Below, one piece after another: positions 4,598-32,426 of a stretch of 32,426 nt of DNA (the stretch's first letter is position 1; the number at the start of each line of letters is the position of its first letter). Origin of the DNA: Providencia sneebia DSM 19967 (GTDB lineage Bacteria > Pseudomonadota > Gammaproteobacteria > Enterobacterales > Enterobacteriaceae); contig NZ_CM001773.1 in NCBI RefSeq assembly GCF_000314895.2, positions 1,643,951 to 1,676,376 on the forward strand. Direction: 5' to 3'. The notes below the pieces were generated by a model. The model was given only the letters and a program-made list of their open reading frames with translations. It searched no databases and had not been told where the DNA came from. A program made the translations under genes and the position numbers.

Positions 4598-6883
4598 ATG
4601 CTCAATCAAGAACTGGAGCTAAGTCTAAACGTCGCATTTGCAAAAGCGAAAGATAATAGACATGAATTTATGACGGTAGAGCACCTGTTATTGGCGCTAT
4701 TAAGTAATACGTCAGCACGTGAAGCTCTAGAAGCCTGTAAAGTTGACCTTGTCGTGTTAAGGCAAGAGTTAGAGCATTTTATTGCACAAACAACACCATT
4801 ACTGCCTGAAAACGACAATCGTGAGGTACAACCTACACTCAGTTTTCAACGCGTTCTGCAACGCGCAGTATTCCATGTACAATCTTCCGGCCGTAGTGAA
4901 GTGAGCGGAGCAAATGTCCTTGTCGCTATTTTCAGTGAACAAGAGTCGCAAGCCGCTTATTTATTACGCAAACATGATATTAACCGTTTAGATGTTGTTA
5001 ACTTTATCTCTCACGGCATGGTGAAGGGTGAAGATGACTCTTCTTCAGAACAAAATAATTCAGGTGTTGGTGGTAATAATGAAGATCAACCAATCTCTGA
5101 AGATCATATGGATAACTTCACAACCAATCTTAACCTACTGGCTAAGCAGGGCAAGATTGACCCGCTTGTGGGGCGTCAGGCTGAATTAGAAAGAGCAATT
5201 CAGGTTTTATGTCGCCGCCGTAAAAATAACCCGCTGTTAGTCGGTGAGTCAGGTGTAGGTAAGACTGCGATTGCAGAAGGTTTAGCTTGGCGCATAGAGC
5301 AAAATGATATTCCTGACGTGATGAAAGGTTGCGTAATATATTCACTGGATATTGGTTCTTTGCTGGCGGGGACTAAATATCGTGGTGATTTTGAAAAACG
5401 TTTTAAATCTTTATTAAAAATGCTGGAAAAAGATAACAAAAATATTTTGTTTATCGACGAAATTCACACCATTATTGGCGCTGGTGCTGCATCTGGTGGG
5501 CAAGTGGATGCGGCAAACTTAATTAAACCATTATTATCGAGCGGACGTATTCGGGTTATTGGTTCGACAACCTATCAAGAGTTTAGCAATATCTTTGAAA
5601 AAGATAGGGCGCTTGCTCGACGTTTCCAAAAAATTGATATTGTGGAGCCATCCGCTGAAGAAACTGTACGTATTATTCAAGGGTTAAAACCTAAATACGA
5701 ATCTCATCATGATGTGCGCTATACTGCAAAAGCCATTCAAGCTGCGGTGGATTTATCGGTTAAATATATTACTGATAGACATCTGCCAGATAAAGCGATT
5801 GATGTTATTGATGAAGCGGGTGCAAGAACACGTTTAGTTGCTCCAAGTAAACGTAAGAAAACCATTGGTGTGCCTGAAATTGAATCAATTGTGGCGCGTA
5901 TTGCCCGCATTCCCGAAAAAACGGTTTCATCAAGCGATAAAGATCGTCTCAAATCATTAGATTCACGTCTAAAAATGTTAGTATTTGGGCAAGATGCCGC
6001 AATCAGCGCACTGACTGAAGCGATTAAAATGAGTCGTGCAGGTTTGTCCCAAGAACATAAACCCGTTGGTTCATTCTTGTTTGCCGGTCCTACGGGAGTG
6101 GGTAAAACAGAAGTTACAGTTCAACTTGCTAAAGCGCTAGATATCAAACTATTGCGTTTTGATATGTCTGAATACATGGAAAGACACACGGTCAGTCGTT
6201 TGATTGGTGCTCCTCCAGGGTATGTTGGCTTTGAACAAGGTGGCTTACTGACGGATGCAGTCATTAAACATCCTCATTCAGTAGTCCTTCTTGATGAGAT
6301 TGAGAAAGCGCATCCTGATGTCTTTAATATCTTACTGCAAGTAATGGATCACGGCACATTGACTGATAATAATGGGCGTAAGGCTGATTTTCGTAATGTC
6401 ATTATTGTGATGACAACTAATGCGGGTGTACAAGAAACACAACGCCGTGCAATTGGCTTTGCTGATCAAGACCATAGCACCGATGCAATGTCAGAAATCA
6501 AAAAAACCTTCTCACCAGAATTTCGTAACCGGTTAGATGGTATTATTTGGTTCAATTCATTATCTATCGAAATTATTACGCAAGTGGTCGATAAATTTAT
6601 TGTTGAACTACAAGCACAATTAGATGAGAAAGGTGTATCGCTTGAAGTCAGCCAAGCCGCACGCCATTGGTTGTGTGAAAAAGGTTATGATAAAGCGATG
6701 GGAGCCCGACCTATGGCGCGTGTTATTCAGGATAACCTGAAAAAACCTTTAGCAAATGAATTGTTGTTCGGTTCGTTAACTAACGGCGGCTCGGTAAGTA
6801 TCGGGCTTGATGATAAAAGTAACACACTGACATATAGCTTCAGTAGCGTACACAAGGCCTCAGCAGAGGATGCGGTATTCTGA
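4598..6883 (+). CDS. clpA: ClpA, ATPase subunit of ClpAP protease
   Basis: 761 residues starting at ATG 4598, which begins MLNQELELSLN as in E. coli ClpA and has GGGAGG just upstream; an in-frame TTG at 4562 would add 12 residues unlike the family. An N-domain (about 1-140) with EFMTVEHLLLALLSN and HVQSSGR docks ClpS. D1 has Walker A GESGVGKT and Walker B ILFIDEIHTIIG. D2 has Walker A GPTGVGKTE and Walker B VVLLDEIEKAHPD. An IGF tripeptide in the RRAIGFADQD loop is the ClpP-binding loop (IGL in E. coli). It unfolds proteins and feeds them to ClpP. clpP is not in this window. A hairpin lies just after the stop. Confidence 0.98.
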   Translation: MLNQELELSLNVAFAKAKDNRHEFMTVEHLLLALLSNTSAREALEACKVDLVVLRQELEHFIAQTTPLLPENDNREVQPTLSFQRVLQRAVFHVQSSGRSEVSGANVLVAIFSEQESQAAYLLRKHDINRLDVVNFISHGMVKGEDDSSSEQNNSGVGGNNEDQPISEDHMDNFTTNLNLLAKQGKIDPLVGRQAELERAIQVLCRRRKNNPLLVGESGVGKTAIAEGLAWRIEQNDIPDVMKGCVIYSLDIGSLLAGTKYRGDFEKRFKSLLKMLEKDNKNILFIDEIHTIIGAGAASGGQVDAANLIKPLLSSGRIRVIGSTTYQEFSNIFEKDRALARRFQKIDIVEPSAEETVRIIQGLKPKYESHHDVRYTAKAIQAAVDLSVKYITDRHLPDKAIDVIDEAGARTRLVAPSKRKKTIGVPEIESIVARIARIPEKTVSSSDKDRLKSLDSRLKMLVFGQDAAISALTEAIKMSRAGLSQEHKPVGSFLFAGPTGVGKTEVTVQLAKALDIKLLRFDMSEYMERHTVSRLIGAPPGYVGFEQGGLLTDAVIKHPHSVVLLDEIEKAHPDVFNILLQVMDHGTLTDNNGRKADFRNVIIVMTTNAGVQETQRRAIGFADQDHSTDAMSEIKKTFSPEFRNRLDGIIWFNSLSIEIITQVVDKFIVELQAQLDEKGVSLEVSQAARHWLCEKGYDKAMGARPMARVIQDNLKKPLANELLFGSLTNGGSVSIGLDDKSNTLTYSFSSVHKASAEDAVF

Positions 6884-11535: not shown

Positions 11536-11735
11536 AATGATTAGTGTGCAGGTGTCGTTTTTATATTGAGAGTGTGCCGCTAGCAAACATGAGTCATTGA
11601 CTAAAATCTAACGGAGTTTGTCGCTATCATAACAGTTTCTTCGTGATATGTTACATAATAAAAGTATGTTATTAAATTAGACTTTGTTATTGTTAGTAAA
11701 TTGTTTTATAAAGGTAAATTGTTAATAACATAAAT

Positions 11736-11764
11736 AAAAAGGCGCCTACTAGAGACGCCTTTTT
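11736..11764 (-). terminator. Rho-independent terminator of trxB
   Basis: AAAAAGGCG (11736-11744) pairs with CGCCTTTTT (11756-11764) around an 11-nt loop. Read on the - strand it ends in a T-run 14 nt after the trxB stop. The stem is symmetrical in A and T tracts. Confidence 0.9.
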
Positions 11765-11777
11765 ATTATTTAGATAA

Positions 11778-12758
<981 letters not shown>

Positions 12759-13092
12759 CTAAAAATAGCGATATAAGGATTGTAGGAGAATTGTTGTGTT
12801 AAAAAAAGCAATTTAAGTGCTAAGTAAATTGCAGTTCAACTATTTTTGCGATAGATAATAGTAATTAAATACAAAAAAAGAGTGCAGACGTAGTTTAACG
12901 AATAATAACCCTCTCAATTTTTAGGAATTATCTTGATTTTGGCTGGTATGATGCCCAAATAGAAAAAAAATCGAAATCTTGTACTGATTTTTATTCATTT
13001 GCTTTGACAATCGGCTGTGCATTTGCGAAAACATCTATGTAAGAGTTAATTATCTAGTAGAGTAATACAAGTGGTTATTTTTTGTACTTGAA

Positions 13093-30878: not shown

Positions 30879-31172
30879 TTATTTTACAGAAGGCTCACAA
30901 ACTTGCTCTAACTGCGACATAAGTATTTCTTCAATGAGTTCACTGCGGCTCATGTTTTTCTCACTCGCCAACTGATTTAATATGCTGACAGCATCTTCAT
31001 TTAATTTTAATTCAACGCGGCGTAACCCTTTGACTTTATCTCGTTTAAGTTGGTTGCGCTTGTTGATTCTTAATTGTTCATCCCGCGATAGCGGGCTTGT
31101 TTTAGGTCGCCCAGGCCTGCGTTCCTCAGCGAACAAATCAAGTGTGGTGCGATCAGTTTGTTCTTTTGCCAT
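30879..31172 (-). CDS. ybfE: YbfE, LexA-regulated ribbon-helix-helix-like protein
   Basis: A 97-residue basic protein nearly identical to E. coli YbfE (DRTTLDLFAEERRPGRPKTS, EQLRINKRNQLKRDKVKGLR, SRSELIEEILMSQL). The AT-hook-like RRPGRPK and a C-terminal ribbon-helix-helix-type segment suggest DNA binding; the function is unknown. In E. coli it is under LexA control. I did not find a convincing CTGT-N8-ACAG box in the 172 bp upstream. No good ribosome site precedes the ATG. Confidence 0.93.
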   Translation of the reverse strand: MAKEQTDRTTLDLFAEERRPGRPKTSPLSRDEQLRINKRNQLKRDKVKGLRRVELKLNEDAVSILNQLASEKNMSRSELIEEILMSQLEQVCEPSVK

Positions 31173-31344: not shown

Positions 31345-31569
31345 TTATTGAGTTTGCTGACGCCATAAGCTGGCATATAAGCCATCTTTTAGGAGTAAGT
31401 TTTGATGTGTATCCATTTCGACCACTTCACCATTTTGAATAACGCATATTTTATCTGCATGCATGATGGTATTTAGTCTATGCGCAATACTGATCACGGT
31501 TTTATTTTTTGTGATAGCTGGCATATTCGCCATGATTGCAGCTTCTGATTCATAATCTAAAGTTGAAGT
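31345..31569 (-). pseudogene. C-terminal remnant of a type I secretion ABC ATPase (HlyB/RtxB-like)
   Basis: Reading from about 31569 down to the stop at 31345 gives 74 codons. They start TSTLDYESEAAIMANM, the D-loop just after Walker B in HlyB-type exporters, continue with TVISIAHRLNTIMHADKICV (switch His of the ATPase) and end QNLLLKDGLYASLWRQQTQ, a normal C-terminus. Upstream codons are ATC then an in-frame stop, so Walker A, signature and membrane domain are missing. The homology stops sharply 40 nt before the integrase stop codon. The rest of the gene is either deleted or on the far side of the element to the right. A partial frame starting with Met at 31533 would miss the D-loop. Confidence 0.85.
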
Positions 31570-31608
31570 GATTTAGAATTCGGGATGTGAAAAATTAGTC
31601 TTTATACA
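31545..31608. other. Candidate element-chromosome junction (att site region)
   Basis: Between the last ABC-like codon (about 31569) and the integrase stop (31609) are only about 40 bp. The core of the attachment site probably lies within or next to 31545-31575, in the D-loop coding sequence. No direct repeat can be confirmed because the other end is outside the window. Confidence 0.45.
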
Positions 31609-32426
31609 TCAGCCAGTTAAGAGTGTTAAATGTGGCTTTTGACTGGCTTCATTATTCGGCTGTGTCGAAATTGTGACGTGCTCACTATATTTGGTCAAAT
31701 GTTGACCGCTGAAGTGGGCGTACTTCTGAACCATTTCTAGCGTTTCCCATCCCCCCATTTCTTTTAATACCATGAGCGGAGTTCCACTTTGTGCGTGCCA
31801 ACTTGCCCATGTATGCCTTAGGTCGTGAAAAGTGAAATCAGTTATGCCTGAATCAGCCAAAGCTTGATAATAGCATTCTCGGTAATGACAACTTCTCCGT
31901 TTTCCGTTATTGGAGAAAACATAGTCACCATCCTTTTCAATCCCATTTAGAATTTCAATAGCCACATCATTTAGCGGAACCGGTCTAGCTCGTCCTGACT
32001 TTGCATTATCAGCCGTTACATGAGCAACTCTTCTAACTAGGTCTACGCTCTTCCATTTAAGTGATAATATCTCGCTTTTTCTCATGCCTGTTAAAATAGC
32101 AATAGAAACAAAATCCCGCATCCACTTAACTTTGATGTTAGATAGGAGTAGTTCAGCTTCCCACTTTTCTAGCCATCGAACTCTAACAACAGGCTCTTTC
32201 ATCCGTGGTATATAGGATGACTTAGTTAGCCATCCCATTTTGTGCGTTAGTGAAAAAGCTCTTAGAATAAACGAGCGATATCTATTCTTTGTTGCACTTG
32301 TTAATTTACGCTTAGTAATAGGGCTATAATCCGGTATTGCATTTGCTATATCATCACTAGTGATTGATGAGAGCTTTTTTCCACCTAAAATAGCGATAAA
32401 ATACTTAGAGTAAGCTTGCTTAGTTT
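31609..32426 (-). CDS. Tyrosine-recombinase integrase of a mobile element (5' end beyond window)
   Basis: The frame stays open from the stop at 31609 through 32426, giving 272 visible codons. The ATG at 32238 is internal because a SAM-like core-binding domain is encoded upstream of it (ITSDDIANAI, KLTSATKNRYRSFILRAFSL). The catalytic domain has Arg in LTGMRKSEILSLKW, the beta-hairpin Lys in NAKSGRARPVPLND, His-x-x-Arg in FHDLRHTWASW, Trp in GGWETLEM and nucleophile Tyr in VQKYAHFS, so it appears intact. Its 3' end points to the ABC remnant, the lambda-like arrangement in which int reads towards its attachment site. It marks a prophage or genomic island extending right. Confidence 0.93.
   Translation of the reverse strand, partial: TKQAYSKYFIAILGGKKLSSITSDDIANAIPDYSPITKRKLTSATKNRYRSFILRAFSLTHKMGWLTKSSYIPRMKEPVVRVRWLEKWEAELLLSNIKVKWMRDFVSIAILTGMRKSEILSLKWKSVDLVRRVAHVTADNAKSGRARPVPLNDVAIEILNGIEKDGDYVFSNNGKRRSCHYRECYYQALADSGITDFTFHDLRHTWASWHAQSGTPLMVLKEMGGWETLEMVQKYAHFSGQHLTKYSEHVTISTQPNNEASQKPHLTLLTG

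What the first reader, a model, noticed from the sequence alone, without database searches (positions are those of the whole stretch)
31345..31608. Integrase element apparently inserted into the conserved ATPase D-loop codons of a type I secretion ABC gene
Homology to HlyB-type ATPases begins abruptly at TS(T)LDYESE (about 31569) and runs to a natural stop, while an intact-looking tyrosine integrase ends only 40 bp away and points at the break. If the element recombined there, its att core would be a highly conserved protein-coding motif, and the 5' part of the exporter gene should lie at the element's other end. Insertion would switch off a toxin or adhesin exporter and excision would restore it, a possible regulated or active-lysogeny switch.
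Basis: partly seen in the sequence, partly recalled or inferred. Interest (0 to 1): 0.7.

Follow-up and report, generated by a model that had tools for sequence, protein, structure and literature searches.

The report
Phage remnant splitting an exporter gene
A leftover bacterial virus sits precisely inside the gene of a protein-export pump, at codons the pump's ATP-burning part needs, and relatives of this virus have hit the same codons in other bacteria.

Summary
A 5,694-bp element with a tyrosine integrase splits a HlyB-type (type I secretion) ABC gene; the missing 5' part lies at its far end, and both junctions carry TGATTCATAATCTAA, the D-loop codons LDYES on the minus strand. The operon (ABC1-HlyD-ABC2) is in 24 of 24 genus genomes (Providencia); ABC2 lacks the insertion in 20 and is split at the same codons in 4, one by an apparently complete 51-kb tailed phage. 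Moellerella wisconsensis and Proteus myxofaciens are split there too. In P. vermicola the site has a mismatch, and the phage sits in an AraC-type gene with a matching sequence. Related integrases lie beside tRNA genes, four beside tRNA-Met with GATTATGAGTC, one base from the D-loop core GATTATGAATC. The truncated ATPase loses 66 residues including the catalytic H-loop. A regulated switch is not shown: the element is a remnant, and five genomes carry operon lesions that are not this phage. Most likely: loss of an exporter by lysogeny, reversible in principle.

The parts
31345..31560 (-). 3' part of the split ABC2 gene (71 codons from LDYES to the natural stop)
   Evidence: orthologous to the end of unsplit ABC2 in 20 genus genomes
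31546..31560 (.). att core repeat TGATTCATAATCTAA, left copy (D-loop codons LDYES on the minus strand); right copy at L003 6191-6205, 5,694 bp away and beyond the window
31561..31608 (.). phage att arm between core and integrase stop, similar in the other split Providencia genomes
31609..32426 (-). tyrosine integrase, C-terminal part; the gene continues to L003 1606 beyond the window (348 aa in all)
   Evidence: PF00589 8.7e-30, phrog_1 5.9e-60
30879..31172 (-). flanking host gene (ybfE-like, name recalled) that follows ABC2 in the 20 unsplit genus genomes

Best explanation
A temperate tailed-phage lineage encodes a tyrosine integrase whose attB is the D-loop codon stretch GAT TAY GAR TC of the second ABC ATPase gene (ABC2) of an rtxBDE-like type I secretion operon. 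Integration crosses over within these 11 bp and brings no replacement for the rest of the gene. The host is left with an ATPase that ends at SALDYES plus ten phage-encoded residues and lacks the last 66 residues with the H-loop. In this genome most of the phage was later lost, leaving 5.7 kb with an apparently intact integrase, an excisionase-like gene and both att sites. Shown: both junctions, the uninterrupted gene in relatives, repeated use of the site. Inferred: that the truncated ATPase is inactive and the exporter therefore off, and that excision is possible but not known to be used.
For: 5' part and 15-bp repeat at the far end. Same codons split in 4 of 24 genus genomes, unsplit in 20, with integrases 84-97% identical to this one in the other three (G018's integrase lacks its first 82 residues). 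Same site in Moellerella wisconsensis and, across two contigs, Proteus myxofaciens. Crossover bounded to GATTAYGARTC by G013 on one side and G011 on the other. P. vermicola, one of 3 among 20 unsplit genomes with a mismatch in this 11-mer, has its phage in an AraC-type gene at GATTATGAATC. Apparently complete phage in G013. Break falls before the residue aligned with HlyB H662, part of the catalytic dyad (PMC8277102 passages).
Against: No excised joint or circular phage seen. No biochemical proof that the truncated ATPase is dead. In P. myxofaciens the two gene parts lie on different contigs, so their connection is inferred. Two other unsplit genomes with a mismatched core (G007, G019) say nothing either way.
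Confidence: 0.87

Rival explanations
1. Regulated switch (active lysogeny, regulated gene integrity): the element excises under some condition, the exporter works, and the element reintegrates.
For: The phage brings no replacement sequence, and elements of that sort can usually be understood as regulated gene integrity (PMC10111431 passages). Integrase open over 348 residues apart from one undetermined base; the small excisionase-like ORF is conserved in 5 of the 6 prophage regions compared. ABC1 and HlyD reading frames are open in G000, G011 and G013.
Against: The element here is a remnant. In G018 the integrase is truncated and ABC1 and HlyD are also broken. Four unsplit genomes have other lesions in the operon. 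The displaced 3' part in G000 has the highest mean pN of 24 and has lost a Gly-Arg pair present in the other 23, although its ratio to the adjoining part (1.71) lies within the range of unsplit genes (1.06-1.87). No excised form found.
Confidence: 0.12
2. The truncated ABC2 still works with ABC1, so the insertion is tolerated and the exporter stays active.
For: In two-ATPase exporters one site can be degenerate (recalled); ABC1 is intact here.
Against: 66 residues with the H-loop are missing; rtxE disruption blocked secretion in Vibrio (PMC3034196 passages).
Confidence: 0.06
3. Chance neighbourhood: the ABC gene was broken by another event and the integrase lies there by accident.
For: The element is a remnant with pieces of several phage genes.
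Against: Exact core repeat, same codons in six genomes of three genera, similar arms.
Confidence: 0.01

Closest known systems
Gene-disrupting prophages used as switches: S. aureus phiSa3/phi13 in hlb, Listeria phi10403S
   Same: Prophage integrates inside a host gene and inactivates it (abstract starts of PMC6597384 and PMC12519783; passages of PMC6814406)
   Different: Target here is an exporter ATPase at its D-loop codons; excision and re-use of the gene are shown there and not here
Regulated gene integrity elements, e.g. HE-PICIs (PMC10111431 passages)
   Same: Site inside a protein gene, no replacement sequence carried in attP
   Different: Host exporter gene instead of a prophage late gene; no regulation shown
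Tyrosine integrases of tRNA anticodon-arm sites (class A of Islander, PMC4383910 passages)
   Same: Related integrases lie beside tRNA genes with the anticodon arm at about the same distance from the integrase stop as the D-loop core
   Different: attB here is protein-coding; there is no tRNA gene in the window or in L003-L005
rtxBDE-type type I secretion operon of Vibrio (PMC3034196 passages)
   Same: Two HlyB-like ATPases around one HlyD-like adaptor in one operon
   Different: No RTX gene beside it, no PF00353 match in this genome, matches in 13 of 24 genus genomes; cargo unknown

Membership tests
Integrated prophage or prophage remnant with tyrosine integrase | integrase gene next to one end | tested here: met
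Integrated prophage or prophage remnant with tyrosine integrase | direct repeat (att core) at both ends | tested here: met
   15 bp
Integrated prophage or prophage remnant with tyrosine integrase | empty site in relatives | tested here: met
   20 of 24 genus genomes unsplit
Integrated prophage or prophage remnant with tyrosine integrase | complete virion genes | tested here: not met
   only fragments in G000; present in the related G013 prophage
Active lysogeny or regulated gene integrity | target gene disrupted, no replacement carried | tested here: met
Active lysogeny or regulated gene integrity | excision seen | tested here: inconclusive
   0 hits for two att-arm patterns in viral contigs; 14 viral records do not reach the core
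Active lysogeny or regulated gene integrity | excision controlled by a host condition | not testable with these tools
   needs an experiment
HlyB-type exporter (TIGR01846) | score over the curated cut-off | tested here: met
   833.1 against 725.55 bits for the 5' part of ABC2, 757.8 for ABC1
rtxBDE-type secretion system | two ATPases and one adaptor in one operon | tested here: met
   description in PMC3034196 passages
rtxBDE-type secretion system | RTX cargo encoded in the genome | tested here: not met
   PF00353: 0 matches in G000
tRNA anticodon-arm integrases | attB in a tRNA gene | tested here: not met
   no tRNA in window or L003-L005; 19 of 40 tree rows, all outside the D-loop clade, are labelled by a tRNA gene or fragment

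The most novel reading that the evidence does not exclude
An integrase lineage related to tRNA anticodon-arm users has captured the D-loop codons of type I secretion ATPases because GAT TAT GAA TC mimics a tRNA-Met anticodon arm (TTATGAA is the reverse complement of a loop with anticodon CAT). Its lysogeny therefore switches off the same exporter in at least three genera, possibly reversibly.
Probability: 0.3. Interest if true: 0.72.

Novelty: new member of a known kind. Interest (0 to 1): 0.52.

Why it matters
It names an attachment site in a codon stretch that HlyB-type exporters need, hit repeatedly in Providencia and also in Moellerella and Proteus. It predicts that lysogens of one phage lineage lose a secretion system that is otherwise kept across the genus, a trait that surveys of gene presence would miss because both parts of the gene remain. 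It also gives a natural series for asking how tyrosine integrases move between tRNA and protein-coding sites.

Tried and rejected
Chance neighbour: rejected by shared junctions. The second genomic hit of the 31345-31700 DNA belongs to another ABC ATPase, CydC-like by my recollection (about 27-44% identity pieces), not to a copy of the element. Excised or circular phage: two exact att-arm patterns in viral contigs gave 0 hits each; of 14 viral records with integrases 66-96% identical (taken from the best 80 of 120 relatives kept), 3 matched the right-end DNA, with short pieces near the record ends that do not reach the core. The phage collection holds no integrase at 60% identity or more (216 records, best 56.5%), and no record covers 80% of the element's DNA, so no sequenced phage gives attP. 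A direct jump from tRNA-Met to the D-loop is not shown: the tRNA-Met users are scattered in the tree, and other sites lie between. RTX repeats do not follow the split: 2 of 4 split and 11 of 20 unsplit genomes have PF00353. Literature: search listings showed me no report of a phage at this site; listings were capped and I read passages of seven papers only. The paper I would most expect to list such sites (Mageeney et al. 2020) is not held, nor is a V. vulnificus rtxE paper. Locus L102 (the interrupted ABC1 of G023) was fetched and not examined further.

Full report
What is there. The window ends inside an element. I read on past 32426 in the same genome (unnamed, 3.88 Mb, 4 contigs; locus L003, L003 position = window position - 31049). 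Left of the element, window 31345-31560 (minus strand) encodes LDYESEAAIMANMP...ISIAHRLNT... to a natural stop. Right of it, L003:6158-8098 (minus strand) encodes 636 residues of the same ABC protein, then ten others and a stop. The junctions share TGATTCATAATCTAA at L003 497-511 and 6191-6205, 5,694 bp apart.

The host gene. Beside the 5' part lie a HlyD-type adaptor (TIGR01843, 374.8 bits, cut-off 208.65) and a second HlyB-type ATPase (TIGR01846, 757.8, cut-off 725.55); the 5' part of the split gene alone scores 833.1. The set ATPase, adaptor, ATPase is that of Vibrio rtxB, rtxD, rtxE, where both ATPases appear necessary (PMC3034196 passages). All 24 genus genomes have the three genes beside a ybfF-like gene (ybfF and ybfE are recalled names). 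In 20 of 24 ABC2 has no insertion at the D-loop and the ybfE-like gene follows; in 4 of 24 (G000, G011, G013, G018) it is split at the same codons. In the alignment of an unsplit relative (702 aa) with HlyB (7sgr) the core covers residues 633-636, just after SAL of the D-loop; the residue aligned with HlyB H662 is 658, so the split removes it and 66 residues in all (positions counted by me). H662 belongs to the catalytic dyad (PMC8277102 passages).

The phage. The other three integrases at this site are 97% (G013), 94% (G018, from residue 83 on) and 84% (G011) identical to this one. In G013, ten large ORFs tested gave, among others, large terminase, portal, head morphogenesis, tape measure, tail protein, Erf and helicase, so that prophage looks complete; G011 was not annotated. 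Core-to-core lengths: G013 51,152; G011 56,774; G018 6,269; Moellerella 53,543; P. vermicola 52,562 (positions). G000 keeps the integrase, an excisionase-like ORF (phrog_2907, 2.8e-9), Mnt, Arc, the start of Ant, an endolysin-domain ORF, an Mrr-type nuclease and a polymerase III theta-like ORF. Of these the excisionase-like ORF has relatives in 5 of the 6 prophage regions compared, Mnt, Arc and Ant in G013, theta in G011 and P. vermicola; the endolysin-domain, DUF4431 and Mrr ORFs have none there. It is a remnant.

Crossover. In G013 attL and attR differ to the left of GATTACGAGTC, and in G011 to the right of GATTATGAATC, so the exchange lies within GATTAYGARTC. Of the 20 unsplit genomes 17 carry this 11-mer; G007, G019 and G021 do not. 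G021 (P. vermicola) has its phage elsewhere: both junctions there contain ACTTTAGATTATGAATC, in an AraC-type gene. The matching part of that gene is in an open frame of 276 codons or more in the other 23 genomes, against 218 in G021, and the core-like stretch is not conserved in the seven relatives read.

Other genera. Moellerella wisconsensis: same operon beside the ybfF- and ybfE-like genes, same core, integrase 81%. Proteus myxofaciens: integrase 66%; the 3' part follows the integrase in contig 38, the 5' part with the same core lies in contig 37 (7,279 bp), and the gene beyond looks like serA (recalled) instead of ybfE; the link between the contigs is inferred. If right, the target is the gene and not the chromosomal place. 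Sampled searches with the integrase found it in 5 of 198 genomes of the family (E <= 1e-70), 14 of 394 of the order and 1 of 369 of the class (E <= 1e-80), the own genome counted each time; most of these are at 42-55% identity.

Origin of the site. I read the DNA after the integrase stop. Four relatives (L131, L132, L236, L239; 44-52% identity) have a tRNA-Met gene there whose anticodon arm reads GATTATGAGTC, starting 52-62 nt after the stop; the D-loop core starts 51 nt after it. One unsplit exporter (G017) has exactly GATTATGAGTC at its D-loop. tRNA-Lys neighbours have GATTAAGAGTC and tRNA-Thr neighbours CATTACGAATG. In the 40-row tree 19 rows are labelled by tRNA genes (17) or by fragments that ARAGORN did not report (2, L238 and L248, the latter short); the labels queA, minC, malY and fliC are my readings of translations, and six rows stay unknown. 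Five Providencia integrases (the AraC one included) and that of Moellerella form one clade (100/100); P. myxofaciens joins it weakly (86/73). Labels rest on what lies beside the integrase; I did not confirm the far junction of the tRNA neighbours. The closeness of the cores is suggestive; a direct jump is not shown.

Function. Shown: the gene is split. Inferred: the ATPase is dead and the exporter off. Cargo unknown: PF00353 has no match in G000 and matches in 13 of 24 genus genomes, without relation to the split. Other lesions: ABC2 frame in G003 and G006, ABC1 frame in G019, ABC1 interrupted by about 1.26 kb in G023, and ABC1 and HlyD in G018. Some may be sequencing errors. The empty HlyD entry for G016 is not a lesion: one search shows it open. 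By this count 16 of 24 genomes have the operon whole. It is kept across the genus but often lost, which fits a dispensable or conditionally useful exporter better than a tuned switch. The displaced 3' part of G000 has the highest mean pN of 24 (0.151) and lacks a Gly-Arg pair present in the other 23, but its ratio to the adjoining part (1.71) is within that of unsplit genes (1.06-1.87).

Verdict. The switch is possible and untested. In kind this is a gene-disrupting prophage; what appears new is the target, its repeated use and the tRNA-like core. The searches named in Tried and rejected showed no earlier report, but the most relevant catalogue could not be read.

Noticed in passing
L003 1378, 1918, 1942, 1983 and eight positions in 5598-5802 (beyond the window): All 12 undetermined bases of L003 lie inside the element; none in the 32-kb window, 1 in L004, 0 in L005. 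Low or mixed coverage, for instance by partial excision, would do this; read depth is needed.
   Followed up: no
L003 4080-4691: Mrr-type restriction nuclease in the remnant (PF04471 5e-24), beside P22-like Mnt and Arc genes; possible defence cargo, without a relative in the six prophage regions compared.
   Followed up: partly
L003 617-628 and 6062-6073: 12-bp direct repeat CGAAATTGTGAC near both ends of the element, possibly integrase arm sites.
   Followed up: no
L039 and L096-L098 (P. vermicola, G021): Exporter site has one mismatch in the core and the phage has split an AraC-type regulator gene instead.
   Followed up: yes
L058 1149-3159 (P. alcalifaciens, G018): Integrase lacks its N-terminal part beside ORFs that look like an IS3-type transposase (recalled), and ABC1 and HlyD are broken.
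   Followed up: partly
L115 (P. alcalifaciens, G018:C1:2390116): A second integrase of the family (57%) ends near a queA-like gene.
   Followed up: partly
L045 (G023), about 11636-12895: ABC1 is interrupted by about 1.26 kb in an otherwise unsplit operon.
   Followed up: no
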